DNA of 64,000 bases from positions 1 through 64,000 of the forward strand of contig CADEGF010000019.1 in NCBI GenBank assembly GCA_902826815.1. Reading direction: 5' to 3'. A program made the position numbers and the translations under genes. Origin of the DNA: an uncultured Mycobacteriaceae bacterium. GTDB lineage: Bacteria; Actinomycetota; Actinomycetes; Mycobacteriales; Mycobacteriaceae. Each line of letters opens with the position of its first letter. The stretch's first letter is position 1. The notes beneath the pieces were generated by a model. That model was not told where the DNA came from. It ran no database searches and saw nothing but the letters and a program-made list of their open reading frames with translations. This document shows positions 1 to 27,423 of this stretch, one piece after another.

Positions 1-99
1 CCCGAGCGCTACCTCATCCCCGACGAAAGCGAAAACGACGGCGACGATAGCGACGACGGTGAGGGCGACGACGGCGGTGAGGGCAAAGCGGACTGTTGA
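1..99 (+). CDS. C-terminal end of an unidentified protein (5' truncated by window edge)
   Basis: Reading from base 1 in frame 1, an open frame runs to a TGA at 97-99. The last 32 residues are dominated by Asp, Glu and Gly (a DGD/EGDD-like acidic tail) and end in KADC. The underlying DNA is an imperfect repeat of GACGG-type units. The gene would converge on the mbtD-like gene, whose stop lies 17 bases further on. Acidic tails like this occur on many unrelated proteins, so no function is assigned. It may be the last gene before the siderophore cluster or a cluster member. Confidence 0.4.
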   Translation, partial: PERYLIPDESENDGDDSDDGEGDDGGEGKADC

Positions 100-115: not shown

Positions 116-3100
116 CTAGCTGCGGGCTGCGGCGAACAATCTTTGGTCGAGTCCGCACAATGCATGGTCCGCTGCGGGCAGCGCCGGCAGGGGAGTGAAG
201 CCGGCTGCCGCCAGTTGGTCACACCACTCGCCTACGGACAGGAAGATCCTGGTACCCGCCCTGATATCGGACTTGCCGGGATGCGGCTGGCCGGGATTGG
301 GCGACATGAGGAATTTCAGCGAGGTCAGCAGCTGGTAGTTGGCCGTGCAGGTCTCGATGAATACCAACGCGCCACCGGGGTTGATCAGCTCGTGCAGCCG
401 CCGCAGAGTGTCCCCGATGTGCAGCGCATTGTGAATGACGTTGGCGGCCAACACGATGTCGCAGTGCTCTTGCCGCGACAGGTCCGCGTTCAAATCGACG
501 ATTCCGTAGCGCAGCTGCGGGTGGTCACCGAAACGCTCCTCGGCGGCGCGAAGGAAGAACTGCGACACGTCGGTGAAGTAGTAGTCCACCGGCAACCCGA
601 CCAAGCCTGCGAGCACGTCGTCGGTCGTACCGCCGGTGCCCGCGCCCAGTTCGAGTATCCGGACTGGTGACCGGTCGCCTGCCAGATTTCGCACCAAGCA
701 CGCGATGACCTCGCGCGCTGCGCGATTCAGGTAGTGGCCGACCACGTTGTCCCGGTAGCCGGCGACAGCCGTGGCCATCTCACCGTCGGCGAACAGGAGC
801 TCCTGAATCCGGACGCGGTCCTGTGCGAGGTCCGTGAGGTGCTCGTTGCAGCTGCGCATGAAATCTGCGAGCGCCCTCGGATAGCCGAGATCTGCGCACA
901 TCGCGAATAGGTCCTGGCACATCGGCTCTGGCACCGGTTCGCCGAGCCGGTAGCCTTCGTCGGCATCGCGATCGAGGTGGCCGCGCTCGGTGAGGACGGC
1001 CAGCCACCTGTTCAGCAGCCAGCGGTGCCGGGGCGCGAAGTCGAGTCGGTCGGCGATGTCGTCCGCGCTACGGGCATCGGTTCGGCTCAGGGCCGGCGAC
1101 AGCGCGTTCATCATGGCGCCCATGCCGACGACGTCGAGATCGGCACGTGCAACCGACATCCGGGCCACATCGAGATCGCGCGGAACGACCTGTTCGGCGG
1201 TCAACCGTGCCTGTTGCACCACGTCGGCGGGGTTGACTCGCACCACGGGTGTGACGGTATGGGGCCGCGCGCTCAGCTTGGCAAGCGCATCGTCGATGGA
1301 GGCGCCGCTCAGCAGGTCGGCGACTTCCAGCTCGTAATCGAACTCGACCTGGACTCGCTTGCGAAACTCCAATGCCTGCAGGGAGTCCAGGCCGATGGCG
1401 ACCATCGGAATCGTGGTGTCGATGCTGTCGGCGTTGTCGAGCCCGATCACCTCGGCGAGCAGTTTCATGAACCGCTGTGAGACATCGGTGGTGTCGACGC
1501 GTTCGGAGGTCGCCTCAGGATCCGACGTCAGCCGCGAGAGCAAGGGCCCGTAGCCGAAGGTTTCCAGCGCGGGCCGGGCCCGATCGAGATCGAAGGCGGC
1601 CACGATGGCATTTCGCCGGAGGTCACTCATTCCGTGTGCCAACGCATCTGTCGGAGACATCGCGACGACCCCGGTGCCTTCCAGCTTGGCTTGGCCCGCG
1701 GCGTCGAGGTCGAGGTGCACCGTCCACTGACCCCACTGCACCGATACACAATCGAGGCCGTCGGCGCGGAGACGGTGCGCCATCGCGTCGAGCATGCGGT
1801 TGGCGGCCGCATAGACGGCTTGGCCGCGCCCGCCGATGGTGGCCGCCATCGATGAGCACAGGTGGACGCGGCAGGTGTCGGTACGGGGGACAGAGTCGAG
1901 TATCTGCCCGATGCCGACAACCTTCGCGCGCAGTGCCGCATCGGCCGCTTCCCTTGTGATATCGGACAATTCGAGATCGGCGTAGGCCACCGCCGTGTGC
2001 ACGATCGTGTCCGCGGGCACGTCTTCGAATGCGGTGGCGAGTCGCGAAACCGCCTCCGCATCACCGATATCGCACAGGAGCACGTCGATCTGCGCCGACG
2101 TACCCGAACGAATCTGTCGGAGCCGACGGGCGACAGCGTCGGTTTCACCAGACCGGCTGACCAATGTGATTCGTGCCGCGCCGGTGTTCGCGAAGTGCTC
2201 GCAGAACTCGAGCCCGAGGTTTCCGGTTCCCCCGGTGATGAGGACATGTGCGGGCGGTGCGGAATCGGGAGCAGCAGAGCTGGTCTCGGCCTCGGCGATC
2301 CGCTTGCCGTACAAGCCGTTGCGGTGTGCGAGCTCAGGCTCGTCGGCGGTGTGCAGCGCCGAAAGGATCGCCGCGGCCGCGTCCGACGCCGGTAGCCCTA
2401 CGGGCAGGTCGAGGTGTCCGAACGCGACGCCGGGATATTCGGCGCCGATGCTTCGGAATCCGGCGCCTGCCGCCGCATGCACCGGACTGGGTGAAGCATC
2501 GCCGTCGACGACCGCTTCGCCGCCCACCGTCACAAGCCAGCAACCAGCGGTAGTGCCACCCAGCTCCGGCCACCAGGTGCGCTCGGCATAGAACGTCGCG
2601 ACCTCGGCGGCGGCCGCTGTGTCGTCGACGATCGGCGAAGGCGGGAGCAGCACAAGCCGGGTATCGATATCGCCGTCGTCGCCGACGTTTCCGATCATCC
2701 TGGCCGTAGCGCCGACGGTATCTGCAGCCGTGCAGATGGCCTCAGCCAAGTCGGCGCAGGCACCGGTGTGATCGATGATCCCGATCGTGCGGGGCGGCAC
2801 GAGCGAGCGGCGCGACAGTCGCACCCACTCTTCGACGAGCAGACGCGCAGGTGCAGTGGATCGGGCCGAAATGTCTGGTGGCGCGTTCTCGGCGGGCGCC
2901 GCAGTGGTCGGCGACGGCGCGTCGTAGATCTGCCACAGGCTCGCCGCATTCATCGGGGTGTTGGGAAAGTCGATCAGCGGCAGGACAGGCGGCCCGTCGC
3001 CTTCAACGCGCAGACACGCCCACGGGTAGTCCAGTTCGCCGACGGCGATCCCGGCGAGGTTGCGGGTGAACTCGTCCAGGTCGGGAGCCGTGCGCTGAGA

Positions 3101-4282: not shown

Positions 4283-4286
4283 TTAC

Positions 4287-5588
4287 TCACTCCGGTGAAG
4301 TTGCGGGCATGGCAAGGATGGCGTGCGCGTTGGCACCGCCCGCGCCGAAGGAGGACGCCACCCCAAGGCGCACATTGTCTTTCGGCTCCCACGGGTGCAG
4401 CTTGGTCGCCAACCGCATGCCGGTTGTGTCCCAGTCCACGGCGGTGGTCGGGTTGTCCGCGTGAAGCGTGGGCGGAATGAAACCGTGCTGGCCCGCCAGC
4501 AGCACCTTGATCAGGCCGAGAATTCCGGACGCCGCCTGAGCATGCCCGACGTTGGACTTGATGGAGCCGATCAAGGCGTCCGATCCTGCCGCCCCGTAGG
4601 TCTGGAACAAGGCGGTCAGTTCCCTCGGGTCGCCTGCCGGCGTCGCGGTGCCGTGGCCCTCGATCATCCCGACATCTGCCGGGTCGATTTCCGCGTGGTC
4701 GAGTGCCTTGCGGATGACTTGCACCTGCGCCTGGGTGCGGGGAACCAGGATCGGTTTCCCCTTGCCGTTGTGGTTGTTTCGAACGGCCAGAATCCGCGCG
4801 TACACGCGGTGTCCGAGCTGGTGTGCCCGAGATTCGCGTTCGACAAGCACCATGCCCGCGCCCTCACCCCAGACGGTGCCGGTGGCATCGTCGGAGTAGG
4901 CCCGGCAGTGTCCGTCGTCGGAAAGTGCGTGCAGCCGAGCGAATTCGAGGAATGGTGACAGTTCACCCATCACACACGTGGCACCGGCAAGCGCCCATTC
5001 GCACTCGTCATCCCGTACCGCCGTGGCGGCGATCTGCAGAGCGGTCAACGACGATGCGCAAGCTGTGTCGAGGCATATCGACGGCCCGAGCAGGCCGAGG
5101 CTGTGTGAGATGCGGCCCGCGGCACCCAGTTGTCCCATCCCGACCGTCCGGTGACCGGTGTAGCCGTCGGCGGTCGACGTTCTGCGGCCGTACTCCGACA
5201 GCGACATTCCGACGAAGCAGCCGACCTCTGTGCCTTCGAGGTCTGCGGGATTGACCCCGGAGTTCTCGAGCGCCTTCCAAGCCACCCGCATCGCCACCCG
5301 CTGTTGGGGGTGCATCGCCTTGGCCTCGCGGTGGGTGATTCCGAAGAACGGCGGGTCGAATACTGCGGCGTCGGTGAGGAATCCGCCCGCGTCGGGTACT
5401 TCTTGATAGCCGTCGATCCGCCGCGATATCGACAGCAGGTCGTCCACCGCCCAGCCGCGGTCGCGGGGGAAGGGGCTGATGAGCTCTCGCGATTCGGTGA
5501 GCGCGGTCCACAGCCCGGCAGGCGTGTCGACTCCGTCGGGCGCCTCGACCGCCATGCCGGTGATGACGACCGGATCGTCGATGATCAT
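4287..5588 (-). CDS. mbtC: MbtC-like stand-alone beta-ketoacyl synthase
   Basis: This 433-aa single-domain ketosynthase catalyses the Claisen condensation for the polyketide unit, working with the AT-KR-ACP protein encoded next. The active-site Cys lies in DTACASS near residue 175, the first catalytic His in EGHGTATPAGDP and the second in SNVGHAQAASG, so all three catalytic residues are present. M. tuberculosis MbtC is about 444 aa. An open frame continues upstream to 5798, but that part is antisense-like low-quality sequence overlapping the thioesterase. The start is taken at ATG 5588 (protein begins MIIDDPVVITG), which overlaps the thioesterase stop in an ATGA arrangement and points to translational coupling. 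Confidence 0.9.
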   Translation of the reverse strand: MIIDDPVVITGMAVEAPDGVDTPAGLWTALTESRELISPFPRDRGWAVDDLLSISRRIDGYQEVPDAGGFLTDAAVFDPPFFGITHREAKAMHPQQRVAMRVAWKALENSGVNPADLEGTEVGCFVGMSLSEYGRRTSTADGYTGHRTVGMGQLGAAGRISHSLGLLGPSICLDTACASSLTALQIAATAVRDDECEWALAGATCVMGELSPFLEFARLHALSDDGHCRAYSDDATGTVWGEGAGMVLVERESRAHQLGHRVYARILAVRNNHNGKGKPILVPRTQAQVQVIRKALDHAEIDPADVGMIEGHGTATPAGDPRELTALFQTYGAAGSDALIGSIKSNVGHAQAASGILGLIKVLLAGQHGFIPPTLHADNPTTAVDWDTTGMRLATKLHPWEPKDNVRLGVASSFGAGGANAHAILAMPATSPE

Positions 5589-6346
5589 GCCGTGTGCCCG
5601 CACTGCGCAGGCGAAGCCATCAAGTCCGCGATGGCGTCCAGATGGTCGTGCAGGTAGAAGTGGCCTCCGTCGAACATCGTGACCTGAAGTGTTTCGGTGT
5701 GTTTGCCCCAGCCGTAGAGGTCGCCGAGCGAGACGATGGGGTCCTGATCGCCACCCATCGCGTGGATCGGGGCAGCCACCTTGATGTCGTCGGCACACGA
5801 ATACGCATCGAATGCGCGGTAGTCGGCCTTGATCACAGGCAGCGCCAGCGTCATCAGATCGCGGTTAGCGAAGACATCGGAGCTGGTGCCTTCGAGCACC
5901 GCGAGATGGCTCAGGATGTCGTCGTCGTCGGTGGGATGCGACGGCTTGGCTGCCGCGTGGCATGGGGCGACGGCGGCGGACACGTTGAGTTGGTGCACGG
6001 CGATACCCTTGGCTTCGGCGATCCTGACGAACTCGAACGCGACCAGCGCGCCCATGCTGTGGCCGAAGGTGACGAGCGGAATCTCACGGTGCTGATCCGA
6101 CGTCGAGAACTCTTCGAAGGCGCCCGCGGCGATCGCGGGCACCGTCGCGAGCAGCGCTTCGGCGCCGCGGTCCTGGCGGCCCGGGTACTGGAAAACGATC
6201 ACGTCGAACTTGGCGCTGAGAACCTTCGAGAAGGTGCGGTACGCCGACGCCCCGGCGCCGGCATGGGGGAAAACGAGCAGTGGAGGGTTCTCGGGTGAGC
6301 CCGGTGCATGAAACTGCCTGATCCACCCGGTTGTCCTGCGCTGCAC
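5585..6346 (-). CDS. mbtT: Type II thioesterase of the siderophore cluster (MbtT-like)
   Basis: This 253-aa alpha/beta-hydrolase is of the LgrA/GrsT type, which releases or proofreads acyl chains on NRPS and PKS carrier proteins. The nucleophile is in GHSMG, the acid is probably the Asp of GGDQDP and the base is the His of GGHFYL. GTG 6346 is preferred over GTG 6355 because the GAGAGG ribosome-binding sequence sits 8 nt before it but abuts 6355. It is the first gene of a three-gene minus-strand operon (thioesterase, ketosynthase, MbtD-like) that diverges from fxbA across an iron-box region. It may also take over the role of the C-terminal thioesterase domain that M. tuberculosis MbtB carries and the MbtB-like protein here lacks. 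Confidence 0.85.
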   Translation of the reverse strand: MQRRTTGWIRQFHAPGSPENPPLLVFPHAGAGASAYRTFSKVLSAKFDVIVFQYPGRQDRGAEALLATVPAIAAGAFEEFSTSDQHREIPLVTFGHSMGALVAFEFVRIAEAKGIAVHQLNVSAAVAPCHAAAKPSHPTDDDDILSHLAVLEGTSSDVFANRDLMTLALPVIKADYRAFDAYSCADDIKVAAPIHAMGGDQDPIVSLGDLYGWGKHTETLQVTMFDGGHFYLHDHLDAIADLMASPAQCGHTA

Positions 6347-6418
6347 GCTTTCCACCTCTCGATCGCTTCGCGCGAATGGACTCGTTCGCCGCGTCAGCCG
6401 TAGGGGCGATACAACAAG

Positions 6419-6437
6419 TTAGCGAAGGCTAACATAA
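6419..6437. promoter_or_regulatory. IdeR-type iron box between mbtT and fxbA
   Basis: The 19-mer TTAGCGAAGGCTAACATAA matches 15 of 19 positions of the mycobacterial IdeR consensus TTAGGTTAGSCTAACCTAA by hand alignment. It lies in the 138-nt divergent gap between the thioesterase and fxbA starts. A plus-strand TANNNT element (TAACAT, 6430-6435) lies inside it, so bound IdeR-Fe would cover the fxbA promoter. A minus-strand TAACTT overlaps the left end and could serve the thioesterase operon. Confidence 0.75.
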
Positions 6438-6484
6438 CCTTGCGAAGCAAGGGATTGCTACTGCGGAGAGGCACAGAGAAACGG

Positions 6485-7426
6485 ATGCGCATCGTATCGT
6501 TCGGCTACCAGACCTGGGGTTTCAAGACTCTGCAGGCCCTCATCGACCTCGGAAACGAGGTCCCGCTCGCCGTCACTCATCCGGCCAGCGAACAGTCCTA
6601 TAAAGCCATCTGGTCGGAGTCGGTTGAGGACCTCGCACGGCAGCGCGGCATACCCGTGCATCTCACCGACCGGGTCGACGCCGAGACGATCGACTTGGTG
6701 AAGCGCGCCGAGCCGGACGTCATCGTCGTCAACAGTTGGTACACCTGGATGCCGCCGGAGCTGTACAACCTTCCGCCCCACGGCACACTGAACCTGCACG
6801 ATTCGCTGTTGCCCAAGTTCACCGGCTTCTCCCCGGTCCTGTGGGCATTGATCAGCGGTGAGTCAGAGATCGGGCTGACGGTGCACCGGATGGACGAACA
6901 ACTCGATACCGGCGACATCCTCGTCCAGCATTCGCTGCCCGTCGGTCCCACCGACACCGGCACCGAACTCGTCCTGCGCGGGATGGACCTCATCCCCGTT
7001 GCGCTGCGGGATGCGCTTGGTGCACTCGAGGCGGGGACCGCGGTCTGGCGACCGCAGAACAAGGCCGAGCGGACCTACTTCCACAAGCGCTCCGAACGCG
7101 ACAGCGTGATCGACTGGAGTTGTCCCGCCGAGGATCTCGAACGGTTCGTGCGTGCGTTGTCCGATCCGTACCCGCGCGCCTACACGTTCTATCGAGGGCA
7201 GCGAATCGAGGTCATCCAGGCACGAATATCCCAGGCGCGGTACGGCGGCACTCCTGGTCGGGTGATCGTGCAAGAGGACGCAGGCGCGGTGGTTGCCGGT
7301 CCGCAGGCCTACCGCGGCCGAAACCACGCACTCTTGATCACCCGCGTTCGCACCGCGGACGGGGCGGAGCACCGCGGCGATGAGTTCTTCACCCGAGGCG
7401 GCTACCTCGGCGGTGAGGCGCAGTGA
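6485..7426 (+). CDS. fxbA: FxbA-like N10-formyltetrahydrofolate-dependent formyltransferase for siderophore hydroxamate
   Basis: This 313-aa protein belongs to the formyltransferase fold of Fmt, ArnA and FxbA. It is predicted to transfer formyl from N10-formyl-THF to a hydroxylamine nitrogen of the siderophore amino acid. The catalytic signature is visible: Asn and His in NLHDSLLP, and Asp in DEQLDTGDIL. The start is ATG 6485 (MRIVSFGYQTWG), with a purine-rich GGAGAG about 14 nt upstream; the open frame back to a TTG at 6440 lies in the leader. The stop overlaps the GTG of the next NRPS gene (GTGA). In M. smegmatis FxbA formylates the ornithine of exochelin MS. Here the neighbouring genes are of mycobactin type, so N-hydroxylysine is the likelier acceptor. 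A house-keeping Fmt is unlikely given the operon. Confidence 0.85.
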   Translation: MRIVSFGYQTWGFKTLQALIDLGNEVPLAVTHPASEQSYKAIWSESVEDLARQRGIPVHLTDRVDAETIDLVKRAEPDVIVVNSWYTWMPPELYNLPPHGTLNLHDSLLPKFTGFSPVLWALISGESEIGLTVHRMDEQLDTGDILVQHSLPVGPTDTGTELVLRGMDLIPVALRDALGALEAGTAVWRPQNKAERTYFHKRSERDSVIDWSCPAEDLERFVRALSDPYPRAYTFYRGQRIEVIQARISQARYGGTPGRVIVQEDAGAVVAGPQAYRGRNHALLITRVRTADGAEHRGDEFFTRGGYLGGEAQ

Positions 7427-12375: not shown

Positions 12376-12382
12376 GGCGCCG

Positions 12383-19900: not shown

Positions 19901-20364
19901 AGAATCTCGACGCGCAACATCGGATGGCGGGCAGCCAGTTTCGCCGCTGCGATACGAAGGCGAACCGGATCGACGTCGGCGCCGTCGAGCTCGACGTAAA
20001 GATGCGACGAGACGCCACCCAGTTGCTGGTCGTCCTGGCGGCCCACCCACATCGCGTGCTGGATCGGCGCGAGCGGAAAGGCGGCTGTCGGATCGGCGTC
20101 CGGTGCGACGGCGGCGTTCCGTGCAATCGGGGGCTTGACGTCATGATCGCCGACCAACTCCGACCACGCCCGCACCGTGGGGTTCTCCGCCAGCACGGCG
20201 AAGCCGACGTCGATACCCCGCTTCCGCCACCGCCCCGACAGCGACATCATCCGGATCGAGTCAAGGCCCGACGCAATCAGGTCGGCGTCGGGATCCAGGG
20301 CATCCGGGGTGACGCCAAGCAGCTCGGCGACCTCGTCACGAACGCTGGTAGGCGCGTCACCCAC
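16906..20364 (-). CDS. mbtB: MbtB-like aryl-carrier/cyclization NRPS (ArCP-Cy-A-PCP)
   Basis: This 1152-aa protein makes the aryl-oxazoline (or methyl-oxazoline/thiazoline) head of the siderophore. An N-terminal aryl carrier has its serine in GLDSIRM near residue 33. The condensation-like domain carries DMQAAD near 220, the DxxxxD signature of heterocyclization domains that replaces HHxxxDG. The adenylation loop TSGSTGEPKG is near 683 and a carrier LGGDSVQ near 1076. Residue choice is Ser, Thr or Cys by family. M. tuberculosis MbtB is about 1414 aa with a C-terminal thioesterase; that domain is absent here. The GTG start has AGGAGGG 8 nt upstream (20373-20380). It diverges from mbtA across an iron box. 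Confidence 0.9.
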   Translation of the reverse strand: MGDAPTSVRDEVAELLGVTPDALDPDADLIASGLDSIRMMSLSGRWRKRGIDVGFAVLAENPTVRAWSELVGDHDVKPPIARNAAVAPDADPTAAFPLAPIQHAMWVGRQDDQQLGGVSSHLYVELDGADVDPVRLRIAAAKLAARHPMLRVEILSDGTQRIGDRELAVAVGDFRELTADGAHEELERIREAKSHQQLDGHVLEISLSLLPGGSTRLHVDLDMQAADAISYRNLMADLADYYRGVEIPELGYTYRDYRAELTSSTPPPPAHDVEWWAERIPDLPEPPALPLIPLSEQTDPQRSIRLWHVFDMATRNALFEAAHRRGITPAMAIGASYANALARWSTNKRFLLNLPMFGREQYHPDVDRLVGDFTSSLMLDIDLRDTDSAARRARAMQETLHATARHSAVSGLDVLRDLSRHHGQQTLAPVVYTSALGLGDLFAGDVLEQFGKPVWTISQGPQVLIDAQATPLTDGLMINWDVRVESFPEGVAEAMFDYHIAELSRLSTDDASWDAPDPPTVSPSARAVRDALNATTAPLSGDTLADGFFRNAAAAPDAIAVISDTEALTYADLLDKVLSVAAALQSRGVTNGDVVAVLGPKNAEQIPALLAIHAVGAAYLPIGFDQPTDRAARILDTGDVEFALFTGADEGDCRTPSLRVSDAELIGDPAHFVPATVDPHDLAYVLFTSGSTGEPKGVEVTHDAVMNTLEFINGHFEIGPADRCLALSTLEGDLSALDTFGMLAAGGSIVAVDEQHRRNPDHWAQLIERHKVTVLHWMPGWLHMLLDVGAGRLSSVRVVPTGGDWVKPAMVRTLVAEAPGLRFAGLGGATETAIHNTICEVTEPPDHWTAVPFGIPLPNNACRVADANGEDCPDWVPGELWVGGRGIARGYRGRPDLTAERFVEHAGRKWYRTGDLVRYRPDGTLEFVGRADHRVKISGYRIELGDVESALQKTPVVAAAVAAVIPAPGDRDGDVLAAVVQAAGPDVTAADVTAVMTEIVPPHMIPQLIVFVDRIPYTVGGKTDRKAVARVLAAAQPAEERAHRAPSTPLQLALTALVGEVLSRKDFDIDDDFFSLGGDSVQATTLVARIRDWLATPTVVLSDVFAARTVAALADRLSSREHDGDRLSQVAEMYLEISTMDSAQIAAELDHA

Positions 20365-20397
20365 TGTCGAAACCCTCCTGAATAAGACTGTCCTAAC

Positions 20398-20416
20398 TTT
20401 GCGCAGGCTACCCTAT
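20398..20416. promoter_or_regulatory. IdeR-type iron box and mbtA -10 element
   Basis: TTTGCGCAGGCTACCCTAT matches 13 of 19 consensus IdeR positions, with the right half nearly perfect. TACCCT (20409-20414) inside it is a TANNNT -10 followed by 6 nt and the mbtA ATG, so the mbtA transcript is probably leaderless and shut off directly by IdeR-Fe. A weaker, overlapping second candidate (about 10 of 19) lies just to the left, around 20382-20400, on the mbtB side. The whole divergent gap is only 56 nt. Confidence 0.65.
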
Positions 20417-20420
20417 CTCA

Positions 20421-22058
20421 ATGAGCGAGCACAGCGATCTTCTGCGCGGCTTCGTGCCGTATCCCGACGACCGCGCAGCCGAGTATCGGCATGCGGGTTA
20501 CTGGGAGGGCAGGAGCGTGGACACGATCCTCGGTGAGGCCGCCGTGAAGTGGCCGGACAAGCCGGCGGTGATCGACGCGGCCGGTGCCTACACATACTCA
20601 GAACTCGACGAGCTCGCCGACCGGATGGCCGCCGGGCTCGCCGGGCGAGGCATCGCTCGCGGCGACCGGGTCCTGTTGCAGCTGCCGAACTCCCGGGAAT
20701 TCGCGGTCGCGGCGCTGGCACTGCTGCGCGCGGGCGCGGTACCGGTGCTGTGCCTGCCGGGCCACCGCGCTGCCGAGCTGGGACACTTCGCCGACGTCAG
20801 CGGAGCCGTCGGCCTGGTGATCCCCGACACCGCGGCCGGCTTCGACTATCGCGAGTTGGCCACCCAGCTTGTCGGTGCGCATCCCGGCCTACGGCACGTG
20901 TTCGTCCATGGTGACCCCGGCGACTTCGAATCTTGGTCCGCACTGGCCGATTCGCGCGATGCGGACCCACCCGATCTGGCGCAGCTCGACACCGGCGCCC
21001 CCGCGGTCCTGCTGGTATCCGGCGGTACGACCGGACTGCCGAAGCTGATCGCCCGCACGCACGACGACTACGTCTACAACGCGATCGCCAGCGCCAAGGC
21101 GTGCGAGCTCGTCCACGACGATGTCTATCTGGTGGTGCTGCCCGCTGGGCACAACTTCCCCTTCGCGTGCCCGGGTCTGCTCGGATCGATGACCGTCGGC
21201 GCGACCGTGGTCTTCACCGATGACCCGAGCCCCGAGTCGGCCTTCCCGCTGATCGTCCGGCACGGGGTGACCGTGACTGCCTTGGTCAACGCGCTCGCGA
21301 AGCTGTGGACACAGGCCTGCGAATGGGAGCCGGTGCTGCCGACCTCGCTGCGGCTGGTCCAGGTGGGCGGCTCGCGAATGTCGCCGGAGGAGGCGCGTTA
21401 CATCTATCAAGGGCTGACAGACGGCCTGCAGCAGATATTCGGAATGGCCGAAGGCATGCTGAACTTCACCCGGCCGGGTGACCCGGTCGACGTCGTCGAG
21501 AACACCCAGGGCAGGCCGATGTCGCCACACGACGAGATGCTGGTCGTCGACGAGGCGGGGGAGCCGGTGGCGCCCGGCGAGGAGGGTGAACTACTCGTGC
21601 GCGGGCCGTACACGCTCAACGGCTACTACCGCGCCGAGGAGGCCAACGCGCGCTCGTTCAGCCCGGAAGGCTTCTACCGCACCGGCGATCGGGTGCGCAT
21701 CTTCGCCGACGGCGCACGAGCTGGATACGTCGAGGTGACCGGACGCATCAAGGACGTCATCCATCGCGGCGGTGAGACGGTGTCGGCGACGGACCTCGAA
21801 GACCATCTGCTCACCCATCCCGCTGTCTACGCGGCGGCCGCCGTCGCCCTGCCCGACGAGTATCTCGGCGAGAAGATCTGCGCGGCAATCGTCTTCAAGG
21901 GTGTGTCGATCAGCCTGGCGGAGCTCAACGCATTCCTCGACGATCGAGGGGCAACCAAGCATGCGCGGCCCGACGTTCTTGTACCGATGCCGTCGCTACC
22001 GATGACTGCGGTCGGCAAGGTGGACAAGAAGAAGGTCATCGCCGCCATCGCGTCGTGA
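20421..22058 (+). CDS. mbtA: MbtA-like aryl-acid AMP ligase
   Basis: This 545-aa member of the DhbE/EntE/MbtA adenylating enzymes activates the aryl acid as its AMP ester and loads it on the aryl carrier of the MbtB-like NRPS. Visible motifs are the ATP loop SGGTTGLPK, an aryl-pocket segment GHNFPFACPG, the YRTGD core and the C-terminal catalytic-Lys region GKVDKKK. M. tuberculosis MbtA is 565 aa. Activity toward salicylate is known for the family; with a 6-methylsalicylate-synthase-like gene alongside, 6-methylsalicylate is an equally likely substrate. The ATG start directly follows the iron box, 6 nt after TACCCT, with no ribosome-binding sequence. Confidence 0.9.
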   Translation: MSEHSDLLRGFVPYPDDRAAEYRHAGYWEGRSVDTILGEAAVKWPDKPAVIDAAGAYTYSELDELADRMAAGLAGRGIARGDRVLLQLPNSREFAVAALALLRAGAVPVLCLPGHRAAELGHFADVSGAVGLVIPDTAAGFDYRELATQLVGAHPGLRHVFVHGDPGDFESWSALADSRDADPPDLAQLDTGAPAVLLVSGGTTGLPKLIARTHDDYVYNAIASAKACELVHDDVYLVVLPAGHNFPFACPGLLGSMTVGATVVFTDDPSPESAFPLIVRHGVTVTALVNALAKLWTQACEWEPVLPTSLRLVQVGGSRMSPEEARYIYQGLTDGLQQIFGMAEGMLNFTRPGDPVDVVENTQGRPMSPHDEMLVVDEAGEPVAPGEEGELLVRGPYTLNGYYRAEEANARSFSPEGFYRTGDRVRIFADGARAGYVEVTGRIKDVIHRGGETVSATDLEDHLLTHPAVYAAAAVALPDEYLGEKICAAIVFKGVSISLAELNAFLDDRGATKHARPDVLVPMPSLPMTAVGKVDKKKVIAAIAS

Positions 22059-22063
22059 TCGCG

Positions 22064-25000
22064 TCAGGATGATTCGACCTGCTGCGGCTCGCGCGACAGG
22101 CCAAGCATCTCGGCCAGCCGCGCGGTGACCGCCGCCGCGGTCGGGTGTTCCCACAGCAAGGTCGGGGGCAGAGAGAGCCCGGTCTGCTTCTCGAGCTGAT
22201 GGCGCAGCCGAACCGTCATGATCGAGTCGACGCCGAGTTCGACGAGCGGCAGACCGGGGTTGACGTCCGAGTCGGGCAGGCCGAGCTGGGCGGCTACCGC
22301 GTTGACGACCTTGCGCGCCAACGCTTCCGGATCGAGGTCGCCGGCTTCCGGTGCGACGAGCGTTCCCTCGTCGTCGGGTTCGTCGTCGTCGGGCGCCACA
22401 TCCGCCAGCATCGGTACGGCGGCTGCTGTCGGAAGCACAGGCAGCACAACGATATTCGGATCATCAACCCGCATCGCCAGGTCGAGCGCACGCATCGCGT
22501 CGTCGGCGACGACAGTGCCCATGCCCAACGCATCGAGTTGAGCGGCGACGAATCCGGAGGTCGACCCCATGCCAAGCCCGCGCCAGGCCGTCCACGCGAC
22601 GGCGGTGGTGCGGTCGCCAAGACGGCGGCGGTGCCTGGCCATCACATCGAGGAACGAGTTCGCGCAGGCGTAGGCGCCCTGCCCTGGGAACCCCGCCAGG
22701 TAGCCGCATGAAGAGAAGAGCACCATCCAGTCGAGCTGTTCGGGCGGGAACACCCGGTGCAGTGTGAGCGTGCCGTGCACCTTCGGCCGCATTGCGGCGG
22801 CGAAGTCCTCCGCCGTCGTATGCGCCAGCAGCCCACCGGCTTCCACGCCCGCGGCATGGATCACCCCGCGGACCGGCGGCAGCTCGCGGAGCACAGCGCG
22901 CAACGCTTGAGCCGCATCGGGGGCGGCGATGTCGATCGCGGCGACGTGGACCGAGACCCCGCGGGCCTCCAGTGCCGTGATCGCGGCGACCGACTCTGGG
23001 CGGGGCTCGTCGTCCCAACCGGAGCGGTGTGGCACGCCCGATCTCGACAACAGCAGCAGCCGCCGTGCGCCAAGGTCGGCAAGGCGCTGCGCCATCCGCA
23101 GCCCCAGTACACCGGTGCCGCCGGTGATCAGATATGTGCCGCCGGGGGAGCAGTGCAGAGGCGTCGACGAGCCGGAAGCCGACGCCACCGCAGCCAGGCG
23201 TGCGACGTGGGGGACACCGTCGCGCTGCACGACCACGCCGTGCCCGTGAAGCGAGCCGAGCACACCGAGGGGGAGTCCGCCGTCGGCGTGGTCGATCACG
23301 CCACCCCACAGCTGGGGGTACTCCGTGGCCGCCACCCTGGCCAAGCCCCACAGTGGCGCATGGCTGAGATTCGACCCGTCCGCCACGCCGACGGTGCGAA
23401 CCCACAATCTGGTCGCGACACCGGACTCCTGTAGCCGCAGCAGCGTTCGCAGCACCAGGTCGACCGACGCCTCGGGTGGGTCGTCGCTGCGGGGGAGCAC
23501 GAACACCGCAGGACGGTCCGCGATCGCAAGGACTGCTTCGATCTCATCGGCGTCCTCGACCGCGACATAGGGCACGGCGGCCGCGGTGAGATCACTTACC
23601 GCGGAGTTCAATCCGTCGACGTCACCGCCGACGAGCACCACGCCGCTCGGCGGCTCTGCGCGTCCGTCTGGCAACGGATGCCACGCGACGTGGTGCACCA
23701 TCCGCCCGATGTCGTTGACCGACCATCCACGGCCGGAGCTCTCCAGCTCCTCGAACGCCATCCCCGTGATGGACAGCAGGACGGCACCTGACCGGTCGGC
23801 GATGGTGACGTCGGTCGTGGTGGTGTCCGGCCTACGCCGAACGAGCACCACCGCGCGGGCAGGCGGAGCGCCGTGTACGTGCAGCCGCTCGATGTGGGCG
23901 GGCATCCGCAGACGAGAGTCGAAGGCCGTCGACGCCGTCGACGTCGCCGCATCGACGAGAGATGCCCACGAAGTGGGTTCTGTTCCGTCGGCCTCCGCTG
24001 TGACGGCGGCGAACAGCTCACCGTCGCCGCGGCTGAGCTCGGTTACCCGCCAATCGAACCCCATCGCGGCGACGCCGAGCGTCTCGAGTGTTTCGATGAC
24101 GTGGTGGGTAGGCAGCTGCTCGGTGCAGCGACCCCGCGCGGCGACGACGTCGACGGTCGAGTCGAGAAGTTCCTCGATATCGTCCTCGGTGGCTACGACG
24201 GCACTGGTATGTGTCAGCCACCCGGAGTCCTGCCCGGCAGCCGTCTCGACGATGCGCGAGGACAGCGTCAGTTCCCGGTCGTGAAGGACCACCTGCAGAT
24301 CGCGCACACGCCCGGGCGGCACCGGCGTGTGCAGCCGCACATTGGCCAACCCCAACCCTGTGCACTGCGGCGACGCGGCATGGTCACCGCCACGGGCCGC
24401 CGCAAGGAAAGTATTCAAAAGCACTGCGGCGGGGACGATCTCGGTGCCCTGGACAGGGTGATCGCCCGGATAGGGCCTGCTGCCCATATCGAGCCTTGTC
24501 TCCCACAGGCACGTCCGGACGGTGCCCGCGACGAGGGTGCGCCCGCCGAGCAGTGTGTGGCTCGCGCTGTCGTGCACGCCCCGGCCTCCGGGCGGCGGCG
24601 TCGGCATGCGCCAGAAGCGGCGGTGCTGCCATTGGGTGCCAGGCAGGTCGGCAGCCCACGGACCGGCCGCGGTGACGCCGTGGGCGACGTCGGCGCCGTG
24701 GCACCACAGCGATGCCACCGCGGCGGCAACGCTTCTGCCCTCGGGCCGCTCGCGACGCAGCACCGGAACGATCGCGTACTCCTCGATGCCGTGGTGCAAC
24801 AGCGTCTCGGCGATCGAGTGGGACACCACCGGATGTGCGGCCACCTCGAGGAACAGCCGATGACCGTCCGCAGCGGCTGCGGCGACCGCCTCGGCGAAGC
24901 GCACCCGGCCCCGCAGGTTCGCCACCCAGTAGTCGCGATCACGAGGGGCAGCCGATCGCGGATCGCGCAGGGCGGTCGTGTACAGCGGCACGGCGGGGGG

Positions 25001-27277
25001 CCGCGACGGTGGCAGCCCGCCGGTGAGACGCGCCAGTTCACCGGTGAGCGCGTCCATCGCCGGACTGTGGAAGGCCACATCGGAGTTGACCCTGCGCACC
25101 TCGATGCCCTGTGCGGCCCACGCCCGCGCGAGGGCATCGACCGCCTCGGCGGCACCCGAGACGACCGTCGACTCCGGCGACGCGCTGATCGCCGCAACGA
25201 CGTCGGCGCATTCGGCCAGCTTCTGTTCGGCCTCGCCGAAGGGCAGCCCGACCAGCGCCATCGCACCGTCGCCCAGCACGGACCTGAAGCCGCGCGCCCG
25301 GTAACACGCCACCGCCGCGCCATGGCGGAGGTCGAACACTCCGGATGCCACGCAGGCAGCGACTTCTCCGACCGAATGGCCGATGACGGCCGCGGGGGTG
25401 ACGCCGTGGGCGCGCAGCACAGCGGCGAGGCCGGCCTGCATCGCGAACGTCAGCGCCTGGACCCGATCGGTGCCGCCGAGCTCGCCGCTCGAAAGTGCCT
25501 GGCGCGCAGAGAATCCGAGCTCGGCGCGGAACACGTCGTCGACCTCGTCGATGACGGCGGCGAAGGCGGGTTCTGTCGCGATCAGTTCCCGCCCCATGCC
25601 TGCCCAGTGCGAGCCGTGGCCGGAGAACACCCAAACGGCGTTCGTCTTGCCGGTGGGCGGGATCGCACCGGTGACGACGCTGGGGAGGCTTTCGCCGCGC
25701 GACAGTGCATCGAGTCCGGCCACCAGTTCGTGTGGGGCACCTGCGACGACGGCCGCGCGGACCCCGTCGTGCGCCCGCCTTGACCACAGGGTGGCAGCGA
25801 CGTCGGCGACCGGACTGGGGACCGCCCTGAGGCGGTCGGCGAGCGCGTCGGCCTGCCGTGCCAGCCGCGCTTCGGATCTCGCCGACACAGGCACGATGAC
25901 GGGCACCTGTCGTGACGACTCGCTGCTGCCGCTTGGCCCGTCGGGAGCCTCCTCGAGCAGTACGTGGGCGATGGTGCCGCCGTATCCGTAGCTGCACACC
26001 GCTGCGCGCCGCGGAACATCGCCGGTGGCCCACTGCTCGGGTTCGATGGGCACCCGAAGGCCGCTGCCCGCCCAATCGATCGCGGGCGTGAGTTTCTTGA
26101 CGCCTGCGGTCGGCGGAATGGCCCGGTGGTGCAGTGCCAGCACCGTCTTGATGAGACCGACGACGCCCGCACCACCCTCGAGGTGACCGACATTCGGTTT
26201 GACCGAGCCGATGGCACATCGCGCGCCGTCGGGTCTGCCCGCGCCGTAAACCGCGGCAAGCGCAGAGACTTCAACGGGATCTCCTGTGGGTGTTCCTGTG
26301 CCGTGCGCTTCCACGTAGCCAACGCTCGCCGGCGAGACCCCCGATACCTCGCAGGCTCGCCTGAACATGTCGGCCTGCGCGTCGCCGTTGGGCGACATGA
26401 TCCCGACGGTCCGACCGTCTTGCGCGACCGCCCCGCCGCGCACCACCGCCAGCACCCGGTCACCGTCGCGGTGTGCATCGGAAAGTCGTTTGAGCACAAC
26501 GACTCCCGCGCCCTCGCCTCGGCCATATCCATCGGCGGCCGCATCGAATGTCTTGCACCTGCCGTCGGGCGCAGTGGCGCCCGCCTCGTCGAGGACGCGG
26601 ATCAACCCTGGACCGATGAGCGCGCTGACGCCACCCGCGAGCGCGAGCGACGTCTCGCCGGCCCGCAGCATCTGGCATGCCTGGTGCACCGCGACCAGCG
26701 AGGCGGCGCATGCGGCATCGAGCGCCACGCTCGGGCCTCGTAGGTCGAGCAGGTGCGACACCCGATTGGCGATGCCGCACAACGAGGTACCGATGCCCGT
26801 CCATGCCTCGATGCCGCTCAGATCCTCCATGATGAGCTTGCCGTAGTCGTCGGAGTTCACGCCCATCAGCACGGCGGTGTCACCGCCTGCCAGCGAGCGC
26901 GGTGAGATGCCTGCGTGTTCCAGCGCCTCCCAGCTGACCTCGAGCGCCAGCCGTTGCTGCGGATCCATCAACTCGGCCTCGCGCGGCGATACCCCGAAGA
27001 ATTCGGCGTCGAATCCCGGCAGGTCGTCGAGGAAGGTGCCCCACCGGGTGATCTCGGCAAGCACCGCGGCATTGCGGGGATCCCGGTGCAGGTAGGGCTC
27101 CCAGCGCTCTTCGGGGACCTCGGTCACGCTGCTGCGGCCCTCCATCAGGAAGGACCAGAACTCCGCGGGGGTGCTGACGTCGCCAGCCACTCGGCAGCCG
27201 ATGCCCACGACGGCGATGGCTTCAGCCGATTCAGCCGACGACTTACGAGGGTAGCCTTGCCTAACCTCGCGTGTCAT
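22064..27277 (-). CDS. Iterative type I PKS, 6-methylsalicylate synthase-like (KS-AT-DH-KR-ACP)
   Basis: This protein of about 1737 aa has one module. The ketosynthase Cys is in DAACAAS near residue 187 with both His motifs (EAHGTGTPTGDP, NVGHLEGG). The acyltransferase has GHSVGE near 633 and a malonyl-type VAFHS motif. A dehydratase/hot-dog region has HPVQGTEIVP near 938. The ketoreductase has GGTGVLG near 1386 and the carrier has GVDSIM near 1682. There is no enoylreductase or thioesterase. This order and size match bacterial 6-methylsalicylate synthases. Beside mbtA it probably supplies the aryl cap. The start is uncertain: ATG 27277 is chosen, the frame extends to 27319, and an iron-box-like sequence falls inside the first codons. 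It ends 5 nt from mbtA, convergently. Confidence 0.82.
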   Translation of the reverse strand: MTREVRQGYPRKSSAESAEAIAVVGIGCRVAGDVSTPAEFWSFLMEGRSSVTEVPEERWEPYLHRDPRNAAVLAEITRWGTFLDDLPGFDAEFFGVSPREAELMDPQQRLALEVSWEALEHAGISPRSLAGGDTAVLMGVNSDDYGKLIMEDLSGIEAWTGIGTSLCGIANRVSHLLDLRGPSVALDAACAASLVAVHQACQMLRAGETSLALAGGVSALIGPGLIRVLDEAGATAPDGRCKTFDAAADGYGRGEGAGVVVLKRLSDAHRDGDRVLAVVRGGAVAQDGRTVGIMSPNGDAQADMFRRACEVSGVSPASVGYVEAHGTGTPTGDPVEVSALAAVYGAGRPDGARCAIGSVKPNVGHLEGGAGVVGLIKTVLALHHRAIPPTAGVKKLTPAIDWAGSGLRVPIEPEQWATGDVPRRAAVCSYGYGGTIAHVLLEEAPDGPSGSSESSRQVPVIVPVSARSEARLARQADALADRLRAVPSPVADVAATLWSRRAHDGVRAAVVAGAPHELVAGLDALSRGESLPSVVTGAIPPTGKTNAVWVFSGHGSHWAGMGRELIATEPAFAAVIDEVDDVFRAELGFSARQALSSGELGGTDRVQALTFAMQAGLAAVLRAHGVTPAAVIGHSVGEVAACVASGVFDLRHGAAVACYRARGFRSVLGDGAMALVGLPFGEAEQKLAECADVVAAISASPESTVVSGAAEAVDALARAWAAQGIEVRRVNSDVAFHSPAMDALTGELARLTGGLPPSRPPAVPLYTTALRDPRSAAPRDRDYWVANLRGRVRFAEAVAAAAADGHRLFLEVAAHPVVSHSIAETLLHHGIEEYAIVPVLRRERPEGRSVAAAVASLWCHGADVAHGVTAAGPWAADLPGTQWQHRRFWRMPTPPPGGRGVHDSASHTLLGGRTLVAGTVRTCLWETRLDMGSRPYPGDHPVQGTEIVPAAVLLNTFLAAARGGDHAASPQCTGLGLANVRLHTPVPPGRVRDLQVVLHDRELTLSSRIVETAAGQDSGWLTHTSAVVATEDDIEELLDSTVDVVAARGRCTEQLPTHHVIETLETLGVAAMGFDWRVTELSRGDGELFAAVTAEADGTEPTSWASLVDAATSTASTAFDSRLRMPAHIERLHVHGAPPARAVVLVRRRPDTTTTDVTIADRSGAVLLSITGMAFEELESSGRGWSVNDIGRMVHHVAWHPLPDGRAEPPSGVVLVGGDVDGLNSAVSDLTAAAVPYVAVEDADEIEAVLAIADRPAVFVLPRSDDPPEASVDLVLRTLLRLQESGVATRLWVRTVGVADGSNLSHAPLWGLARVAATEYPQLWGGVIDHADGGLPLGVLGSLHGHGVVVQRDGVPHVARLAAVASASGSSTPLHCSPGGTYLITGGTGVLGLRMAQRLADLGARRLLLLSRSGVPHRSGWDDEPRPESVAAITALEARGVSVHVAAIDIAAPDAAQALRAVLRELPPVRGVIHAAGVEAGGLLAHTTAEDFAAAMRPKVHGTLTLHRVFPPEQLDWMVLFSSCGYLAGFPGQGAYACANSFLDVMARHRRRLGDRTTAVAWTAWRGLGMGSTSGFVAAQLDALGMGTVVADDAMRALDLAMRVDDPNIVVLPVLPTAAAVPMLADVAPDDDEPDDEGTLVAPEAGDLDPEALARKVVNAVAAQLGLPDSDVNPGLPLVELGVDSIMTVRLRHQLEKQTGLSLPPTLLWEHPTAAAVTARLAEMLGLSREPQQVESS
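27251..27269. promoter_or_regulatory. IdeR-like box at the start of the 6-methylsalicylate-synthase-like gene
   Basis: On the minus strand AGGTTAGGC matches nine consecutive IdeR consensus bases, and the 19-mer as a whole 13 of 19. It ends in GGCTACC, part of the same GGCTACCCT string as the mbtA box; TACCCT here is 27248-27253. The box lies just inside the reading frame after ATG 27277. Either the operator overlaps early codons or translation starts further in. It could also influence the divergent thioredoxin gene. Confidence 0.5.
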
Positions 27278-27423
27278 GCGGAACATATTCGCACACCAAC
27301 CGGGCCGGGAGGAGGTCATACCTGGTGAGCAACGTCACGGTTCGGCGTGTGGTCACGCGCTTCCTGCGGTTCCATTGACCACATAGTGGGAACACACCGG
27401 AAAACACAGGCGTTAGGAGAAGC

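What the first reader, a model, noticed from the sequence alone, without database searches (positions are those of the whole stretch)
116..27277. Mycobactin-family cluster that predicts a new hybrid: 6-methylsalicyl cap, N-formyl hydroxamate and alpha-methylated polyketide arm
The order of MbtA, MbtB, MbtC, MbtD, MbtE and MbtF functions is present, but three features change the product. An FxbA-type formyltransferase replaces the need for a long-chain acyltransferase. MbtD has an extra methyltransferase. A 6-methylsalicylate-synthase-like PKS is included. Formylated hydroxylysine and alpha-methylated beta-hydroxy acids are known from Nocardia relatives (formobactin, amamistatin, brasilibactin), and 6-methylsalicyl caps from some mycobactins (for example mycobactin P). 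All three encoded at one mycobacterial locus is, as far as I know, unusual. Without the lipid tail the siderophore could be shed to the medium rather than kept in the envelope.
Basis: partly seen in the sequence, partly recalled or inferred. Interest (0 to 1): 0.88.

Follow-up and report, generated by a model that had tools for sequence, protein, structure and literature searches.

The report
Formobactin-like siderophore cluster in a mycobacterium
A mycobacterium carries an iron-scavenger gene cluster of the kind known from Nocardia, with an unusual trio of variations that predicts a molecule I found no record of in the papers I could search; the greasy tail is probably not lost, as first thought, but sits on another arm.

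Summary
The cluster and its three features are real, but it is a nocobactin-type locus, not an mbt locus that lost its tail. The AT-KR-ACP-methyltransferase passes NCBI's NbtC cut-off (1432 vs 1150 bits) and fails MbtD's (734); the other genes fit the nocobactin set, with mbtG and mbtH on another contig. In that family the long chain sits on the PKS arm. A formyltransferase fills the slot that holds an acetyltransferase in a sister cluster. A methylmalonyl-type AT plus cMT predicts gem-dimethyl rather than mono-methyl. No salicylate synthase was found in the genome; the 6-MSAS-like PKS probably replaces it: over 396 mycobacterial genomes the two gene types are anticorrelated (20 both, 105 PKS only, 190 synthase only, 81 neither), and in a 15-row tree the PKS-linked aryl ligases form one clade. 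Iron-box-like sites stand at the three promoters, one of them weak. Among 19 genomes with an NbtC-type gene near such a formyltransferase, only this one has the PKS in the same cluster and an in-frame cMT. New variant of a known kind; the product is inferred, not shown.

The parts
116..4282 (-). nbtC-like PKS: AT-KR-ACP-cMT, 1388 aa
   Evidence: NCBIfam NbtC 1432 bits (cut-off 1150), MbtD 734 (cut-off 1150); Pfam AT, KR, PP-binding, Methyltransf_12; AT motifs GHSQG and YPAH
116..1252 (-). C-terminal C-methyltransferase domain of the above
   Evidence: residues from about 1010 to the end; LELGAGTGGTT, NVIHNA, FIETC motifs; 57% and 59% id to the cMT of Nocardia gamkensis and N. rhamnosiphila NbtC
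4287..5590 (-). ketosynthase (nbtB/mbtC-like)
   Evidence: ketoacyl-synt domains; the 4287-5798 ORF runs into the thioesterase gene, so the start near 5590 is inferred
5585..6355 (-). thioesterase
   Evidence: PF00975 146 bits
6419..6437 (.). iron-box (IdeR)-like site between thioesterase and formyltransferase genes
   Evidence: 15/19 to a recalled consensus, best score in 64 kb; 20 simulations average 0.05 sites of 14 and none of 15 per 64 kb
6485..7426 (+). N-formyltransferase (FxbA/TerH-like) in the acyl-transfer slot
   Evidence: PF00551 + PF02911; NLHDSLLP and DTGDI motifs; 74-84% id to formyltransferases of fetched mycobacterial and Nocardia nocobactin-type loci; stop overlaps next start, GTGA
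7423..12375 (+). NRPS C-A-T-C-T (nbtD/mbtE-like)
   Evidence: Pfam architecture
12383..16909 (+). NRPS C-A-T-E (nbtE/mbtF-like)
   Evidence: Pfam; second condensation-like domain has HHLTVDVVSW, read as E-type
16906..20364 (-). NRPS T-Cy-A-T (nbtF/mbtB-like)
   Evidence: Pfam; DxxxxDxxS motif DMQAADAIS
20398..20416 (.). weak iron-box-like site in the mbtB/mbtA divergent promoter
   Evidence: 13/19, alone no better than chance (0.65 expected per 64 kb)
20421..22058 (+). aryl-AMP ligase (mbtA/nbtT)
   Evidence: one 100/100 clade with the 7 other PKS-linked MbtA in a 15-row tree
22064..27277 (-). 6-methylsalicylate-synthase-like iterative PKS KS-AT-TH-KR-ACP
   Evidence: Pfam; HPVQGTEIVP; malonyl-type AT GHSVG/AFH; homologues of 48% id or more in 125 of 396 mycobacterial genomes
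27246..27269 (.). iron-box-like site (two overlapping matches) at the 5' end of the PKS gene
   Evidence: 14/19 and 13/19

Best explanation
An iron-repressed nocobactin/formobactin-type siderophore pathway. The MSAS-like PKS makes 6-methylsalicylate; the MbtA homologue adenylates it and loads the T-Cy-A-T NRPS, which makes an aryl-oxazoline with Ser or Thr (undecided; no SagB-like gene lies among the cluster's genes, which favours oxazoline over oxazole). The C-A-T-C-T NRPS adds lysine, N-hydroxylated by the unlinked MbtG and N-formylated by the formyltransferase. The KS and the AT-KR-T-cMT protein extend a fatty acyl starter with methylmalonyl-CoA, add a second alpha-methyl and reduce the beta-keto group, giving a 2,2-dimethyl-3-hydroxy fatty acid that is esterified to the lysine and carries the lipid tail. 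The C-A-T-E NRPS adds the second N-hydroxylysine, released as the caprolactam. Shown: gene content, domains, motifs, no salicylate synthase and no NbtH/MbtK found in the assembly, synteny, iron-box-like sites. Inferred: every chemical step, the regulation and the product.
For: NbtC by curated model, and the genome's only match to that model at E <= 1e-150 (2 of 24 first-look candidates scored). Three chorismate-binding enzymes in the genome: TrpE, PabB and an isochorismate synthase-like protein, each far below the salicylate-synthase cut-off. MSAS-like and MbtI anticorrelated over 396 genomes: 20 both, 105 MSAS-like only, 190 MbtI only, 81 neither. PKS-linked MbtA form one clade, 100/100, in a 15-row tree. 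The same slot in genome G170 holds a GNAT acetyltransferase of 175 bits; the own genome's best is 28 bits. This and all 34 other NbtC-type sequences put in the tree carry GHSQG and YPAH. MS of N. gamkensis and N. rhamnosiphila, whose NbtC also carries the cMT, fits N-formyl, gem-dimethyl products (PMC7413640). My formula for the family reproduces the published N. gamkensis ion 810.3199. The two best iron-box-like sites of the 64 kb lie at the formyltransferase and PKS genes, well above chance, with like sites at the relatives' promoters checked.
Against: No chemistry or expression data. The assembly is in 141 contigs, so a missing MbtI or MbtK could lie in a gap. No characterised 6-MSAS sequence was on hand for a direct tree, and the PKS has no curated name above cut-off. 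The MSAS/MbtI counts are not phylogenetically independent; 20 genomes have both and 81 neither. The genome searches scored only a few first-look candidates per genome. The cMT could be silent and AT specificity rests on motifs. Starter chain length cannot be read from sequence. The third iron-box-like site (20398) is weak. mbtG and mbtH are unlinked in this assembly. Salicylate from isochorismate by an untested enzyme is not excluded.
Confidence: 0.7

Rival explanations
1. The cap is plain salicylate, made from isochorismate by an enzyme outside the known salicylate synthases, and the MSAS-like PKS serves another product.
For: An isochorismate synthase-like gene exists (C21); 20 of 396 genomes hold both MSAS-like and MbtI genes.
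Against: The MSAS-like gene sits beside MbtA here and in 7 of 7 other loci where both were fetched (loci chosen for their siderophore genes); it has an iron-box-like site; its MbtA belongs to the PKS-linked clade; no salicylate synthase passes cut-off in this genome.
Confidence: 0.12
2. The alpha carbon carries a single methyl: the cMT is inactive, or it acts on a malonyl-derived unit, giving a brasilibactin-like arm.
For: PMC7413640 describes the family's hydroxy acid as alpha-methyl and the alpha-dimethyl acid as rare; AT specificity is read from motifs only.
Against: cMT motifs intact; methylmalonyl-type AT signature; two Nocardia strains with cMT-bearing NbtC give MS that fits gem-dimethyl products.
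Confidence: 0.2
3. The formyltransferase belongs to an exochelin-like pathway that happens to lie here, and the hydroxylysine is left unacylated or acylated by another enzyme.
For: Ten fetched mycobacterial formyltransferases without nocobactin genes beside them are 77-81% identical and not separated from these in the tree; M. abscessus MBT Ab is proposed to lack an acyl group (PMC9505556).
Against: It is the genome's only match at E <= 1e-40, overlaps the NRPS start, has the iron-box-like site, and lies within 12 kb of an NbtC-type gene in 19 of 396 genomes.
Confidence: 0.08
4. One reading: a mycobactin without a lipid tail, shed to the medium.
For: No MbtK-like acyltransferase was found, so no long acyl group is expected on the hydroxylysine.
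Against: NbtC class, not MbtD; nocobactins and MBT Ab carry the chain on the PKS arm.
Confidence: 0.04

Closest known systems
Formobactin / amamistatin-type pathways (Nocardia nocobactin subfamilies with TerH and AT-KR-T-cMT; N. gamkensis, N. rhamnosiphila)
   Same: Same NRPS/PKS logic, NbtC with cMT, N-formyl and gem-dimethyl product by MS, caprolactam (PMC7413640)
   Different: Salicylate cap as described; no MSAS-like gene in the N. gamkensis, N. rhamnosiphila, N. sienata, Nocardia MAG or Aldersonia genomes with a cMT-bearing NbtC. The formyltransferase was not within the stretch fetched for these five
Mycobacterial nocobactin-type cluster with formyltransferase and salicylate synthase (e.g. 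M. simulans, L148/L142)
   Same: nbtC-KS-TE-formyltransferase-mbtE-mbtF block in the same order, 63-82% identical; same iron-box-like site before the formyltransferase
   Different: Has mbtI, MbtA 64% and best MbtB match 45% identical, and no cMT
Sister cluster in unnamed Mycobacterium genome G170
   Same: Same gene order and right flank (trx, enoyl-CoA hydratase, ABC-F); MSAS-like, MbtA and MbtB 70-87% identical
   Different: Acetyltransferase in place of the formyltransferase; no cMT
M. abscessus MBT Ab and M. marinum mycobactin M
   Same: Mycobacterial products with the alkyl chain on the PKS-made moiety (PMC9505556)
   Different: Salicylate-derived (M. abscessus); no acyl group on the hydroxylysine in the proposed structures
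Mycobactins P, F, H (6-methylsalicyl caps; recalled, not read)
   Same: 6-methylsalicyl cap
   Different: Long acyl chain on the hydroxylysine, short hydroxy-acid arm (recalled)
Cahuitamycin C
   Same: 6-MSAS feeding a salicylate-type ligase and an oxazoline-forming NRPS (PMC4757757, passages)
   Different: Streptomyces, 6-MSAS unlinked, different backbone

Membership tests
Nocobactin-type siderophore cluster | NbtC-type AT-KR-T PKS | tested here: met
   1432 bits against cut-off 1150
Nocobactin-type siderophore cluster | NbtD C-A-T-C-T, NbtE C-A-T-E, NbtF T-Cy-A-T, NbtB KS, aryl ligase | tested here: met
   against the architecture in PMC7413640 section 9
Nocobactin-type siderophore cluster | Short-acyl N-transferase (NbtH or TerH) | tested here: met
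   formyltransferase in the slot
Nocobactin-type siderophore cluster | Salicylate synthase NbtS | tested here: not met
   none found in the genome; MSAS-like PKS instead. This is the variation, so membership is claimed only as a variant
Nocobactin-type siderophore cluster | Lysine N-hydroxylase | tested here: met
   MbtG homologue on contig C50, outside the window
Nocobactin-type siderophore cluster | Long-chain hydroxy acid in the product | not testable with these tools
   needs LC-MS
Mycobactin (mbt) cluster | MbtD | tested here: not met
   734 bits against cut-off 1150
Mycobactin (mbt) cluster | MbtK-type acyltransferase | tested here: not met
   best PF13523 hit 28 bits, a general GNAT
6-methylsalicylate synthase | KS-AT-TH/DH-KR-ACP on one chain with an HxxxGxEIVP-type motif (recalled) | tested here: met
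   TH region matches one solved PKS domain, 7vwk
6-methylsalicylate synthase | Groups with characterised 6-MSAS enzymes | not tested
   no characterised reference sequence on hand; PMC2636887 (passages) places four Mycobacterium PKSs of unknown function as sister to fungal 6-MSAS, not matched to these genes
6-methylsalicylate synthase | Makes 6-MSA | not testable with these tools
   needs enzyme assay
Formobactin/amamistatin-type pathway | NbtC with C-terminal cMT plus methylmalonyl AT | tested here: met
   AT specificity by motif only
Iron (IdeR) regulation | Iron box at promoters | tested here: met
   15, 14 and 13 of 19 at the three promoters, the last no better than chance alone; an exact-consensus search with up to 3 mismatches found none; binding not tested

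The most novel reading that the evidence does not exclude
Mycobacterial siderophore loci are built from exchangeable cassettes: a starter cassette (MSAS-MbtA-MbtB, or MbtI with its own MbtA and MbtB), an acyl slot (acetyltransferase, formyltransferase, or both), and an optional cMT on NbtC. This locus is a combination not seen in the other genomes examined and makes an undescribed 6-methylsalicyl, N-formyl, gem-dimethyl lipid siderophore. The MSAS-like gene is then the genetic source of the long-known 6-methylsalicyl mycobactins, and may give a function to the Mycobacterium PKSs once reported as sister to fungal 6-MSAS.
Probability: 0.6. Interest if true: 0.65.

Novelty: new variant of a known kind. 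Interest (0 to 1): 0.55.

Why it matters
It gives a concrete, mass-testable prediction for an apparently unrecorded siderophore, shows that Nocardia-type formyl chemistry with the lipid on the PKS arm recurs in Mycobacterium (NbtC-type gene near a formyltransferase in 19 of 396 genomes), and offers a gene for the origin of the 6-methylsalicyl cap (MSAS-like in 125 of 396 genomes). Inhibitors such as salicyl-AMS act on MbtA (PMC9505556, passages); a clade of MbtA that likely takes 6-methylsalicylate may matter for their spectrum.

Tried and rejected
Rejected: a lipid-less mycobactin (NbtC class; the chain belongs on the PKS arm). Rejected: calling the cMT a recent import from Nocardia. Its identity to other cMTs (50-59%) is like that of the AT-KR part to the same cMT-bearing proteins (51-56%), and the small cMT tree can be rooted to fit vertical retention; undecided. 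Not usable for Ser/Thr prediction: the MbtB A-domain code (DLLHPGLIH) is shared, but for one position, only with the two sister clusters among the 24 others read. The formyltransferase tree is poorly resolved. Rfam scan of the window: 0 hits at gathering threshold. The exact-consensus iron-box search with up to 3 mismatches found none; the scored scan replaced it.

Own errors: the first MbtI query was an antisense reading, so its MbtI labels were unsafe; one search repeated it in the right frame and found MbtI in L148, L154, L155, L176 and L182. Residues that separate PKS-linked MbtA (26 positions) include some near the expected aryl pocket, but a clade always has fixed differences, so I do not count this as evidence.

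Rows dropped before counts: 15 of the 140 genomes (only 30-35% identical); the tree used 35 of the 57 loci with an NbtC/MbtD-like hit, plus the window; G007, G010 and G392, whose formyltransferase and NbtC lie on different contigs, are not in the count of 19.

Literature: 10 paper searches used. In their listings, and in the passages I opened, I saw no paper that ties a 6-MSAS gene to a mycobactin; not every listed paper was opened, and subscription papers are not held. Seen: PMC7413640 (passages, section 9, part 1 of 2 of section 10), PMC9505556 (passages and section 11), and passages of PMC8978914, PMC4757757, PMC11877719, PMC4810606, PMC10296737, PMC2661021, PMC2636887, PMC4256081 and PMC6262359. 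Others: listing only.
Full report
Observation. The nine genes are intact ORFs with the domains named in 'parts'. The window is bases 1-64000 of contig C19 of a 6.87 Mb, 141-contig mycobacterial genome (99.91% complete, 1.25% contaminated). The first 68 bases are a repeat also found near the starts of contigs C22 and C2, so the left edge of the cluster is an assembly edge. To the right of the PKS come genes read as thioredoxin and enoyl-CoA hydratase, then an ABC-F protein, aconitase and other housekeeping genes; the first three flank the sister cluster of genome G170 in the same order.

Class. The AT-KR-ACP-MT protein scores 1432 bits with NCBI's NbtC model (cut-off 1150) and 734 with MbtD (cut-off 1150). 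Over 396 mycobacterial genomes the NbtC model gives 69 genomes over the cut-off; the lower matches listed lie at 676-731 bits, apart from two fragments (1095 and 888), and more are not listed. This genome has one match at E <= 1e-150, the window's; only one or two candidates per genome were scored. The remaining genes match the nocobactin architecture of Chen et al. 2020 (PMC7413640, section 9): KS, C-A-T-C-T, C-A-T-E, T-Cy-A-T and a stand-alone ligase. Cy, E, formyltransferase and cMT motifs are intact. The N-hydroxylase (436 aa) and an MbtH protein (PF03621, 103 bits) lie side by side on contig C50, with a 15/19 iron-box-like site just before mbtG and a gene with an integrase core (rve, 41 bits) just after mbtH. 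In G170 mbtG and mbtH abut the 3' end of nbtC, so a mobile-element insertion between mbtH and nbtC is a likely reason for the split; this was not resolved.

Lipid tail. In nocobactins the KS/NbtC pair is proposed to extend a fatty acid with methylmalonyl-CoA, and the hydroxylysine carries acetyl or formyl. M. abscessus MBT Ab likewise has the alkyl chain on the MbtC-MbtD moiety; like ions were seen in cells and supernatants (PMC9505556 section 11).

Hydroxamate acyl group. The formyltransferase lies between TE and the first NRPS and overlaps the NRPS start by GTGA. In G170 the same slot holds a 180-aa GNAT with 175 bits to Acetyltransf_8. The own genome's best such hit is 28 bits, a general GNAT. 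Of 396 genomes, 109 have a formyltransferase match at E <= 1e-40, and 19 have it within 12 kb of an NbtC-type gene on the same contig. G007 and G010 are not counted because contig ends intervene, although their formyltransferases lie beside siderophore genes. Of the 30 formyltransferase loci fetched, the window's included, five (G367, G381, G235, G107, G210) also carry the acetyltransferase and a sixth (G007) is cut off within it; M. asiaticum (L189) carries both too, with a formyltransferase identical to G235's, so perhaps not independent. The slot therefore looks exchangeable. Chen et al. also report one Nocardia cluster with both nbtH and terH.

Alpha-methylation. The 35 NbtC-type sequences of the AT-KR tree, this one included, all carry GHSQG and YPAH, read as methylmalonyl-type; the single MbtD-type row does not. 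With the cMT this predicts an alpha,alpha-dimethyl acid. An in-frame cMT was found or is indicated in 7 of the 70 genomes with an NbtC-type gene that I considered (69 over cut-off plus the fragment in G044): this one, G341, G038, G080, G062, G313 and G121, the last only partly fetched. For most of the others this rests on open-frame length alone. Among the 19 genomes with a formyltransferase nearby only this one has it; G229 and G164 have long frames but no cMT by tblastn. N. gamkensis and N. rhamnosiphila carry the domain, and Chen et al. report MS fitting N-formyl, gem-dimethyl products from both. My general formula gives 810.3199 for the C14 formobactin gallium ion, equal to their value.

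Aryl cap. The PKS is KS-AT-TH-KR-ACP with HPVQGTEIVP and a malonyl-type AT. Its TH region matches one solved PKS domain, 7vwk, at 6e-31. No curated family names it above cut-off. One search found 140 of 396 genomes at E <= 1e-30 (three candidates scored per genome in the rows shown); I kept the 125 with 48% identity or more and dropped 15 with 30-35%. Salicylate synthase (TIGR03494) passes cut-off in 210 of 396 and not in this genome. Together: 20 both, 105 MSAS-like only, 190 MbtI only, 81 neither; Fisher p 1e-24, which ignores shared ancestry. The three chorismate-binding enzymes of this genome are TrpE, PabB and an isochorismate synthase-like protein. In a 15-row MbtA tree the 8 PKS-linked sequences form one clade, 100/100, across clusters whose other halves differ. 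MbtB shows the same split: 72-78% to the two sister clusters (pieces) and 64-68% to five other PKS-linked loci, against 45-50% for the best match in the two formyl clusters read (G023, G229). The starter half and the elongation half thus have different affinities. Precedents from passages: cahuitamycin's unlinked 6-MSAS (PMC4757757); MSAS/OSAS sub-clusters moving between cluster types, one into a coelibactin-like siderophore cluster (PMC4256081); and four Mycobacterium PKSs of unknown function placed as sister to fungal 6-MSAS (PMC2636887), which I could not match to these genes.

Rarity. Of the 19 genomes with NbtC near a formyltransferase, 17 have MbtI and 2 have the MSAS-like gene: this one, and G201, where it lies on another contig with its own MbtA and MbtB. 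In 21 genomes reached through named records, 5 had a match to the PKS segment at E <= 1e-20: M. barrassiae and a Mycobacteriaceae MAG at 54-59% identity (their match places equal those of G080 and G213, so they are probably in the 396 too) and three at 33-35%. The five Nocardia and Aldersonia genomes with a cMT-bearing NbtC had none (a 22nd genome, L155, was not held).

Regulation. Against a recalled iron-box consensus the best positions of the 64 kb are 15/19 (6419), 14/19 (27246) and three at 13/19 (27251, 20398, 6009). The last lies inside the TE gene; the others are at the cluster's divergent promoters, 27246-27269 within the PKS ORF as annotated. Twenty simulations average 0.65 sites of 13, 0.05 of 14 and none higher per 64 kb, so the 20398 site alone is weak. 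Sites of 13-15 stand at the matching G170 promoters and of 15 before the formyltransferases of G023 and G229. A plain search with up to 3 mismatches had found none.

History. The AT-KR part nests in a 14-row mycobacterial group (97/95) whose other members lack the cMT, but the data do not tell ancestral retention from an old gain.

Verdict. A nocobactin/formobactin-type cluster with a 6-methylsalicylate starter cassette: a new variant of a known kind, with a sharp prediction and no chemistry yet.

Noticed in passing
G000:C50 (L027 9337-10843): mbtG and mbtH sit together behind an iron-box-like site and just before a transposase-like (rve) gene, away from the cluster they probably serve.
   Followed up: partly
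L189 (M. asiaticum) and genomes G235, G210, G107, G367, G381: Nocobactin-type loci that carry both a formyltransferase and an acetyltransferase in the acyl slot, suggesting mixed products or an intermediate of a swap.
   Followed up: partly
G201: C8 807001-827000 and C9 420001-440000 (L140, L141): A formyl NbtC locus with no mbtA or mbtB hit in the stretch fetched, plus a separate MSAS-mbt locus; the two might cooperate.
   Followed up: no
G000:C5 about 26-40 kb (L025, L026): A second large NRPS/PKS locus in the genome, product not identified.
   Followed up: no
window 22064-27319: An iron-box-like site overlaps the 5' end of the PKS ORF, so the annotated start may be too far upstream.
   Followed up: partly
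window 1-68: Contig-end repeat shared with the starts of contigs C22 (99%) and C2 (82%).
   Followed up: partly
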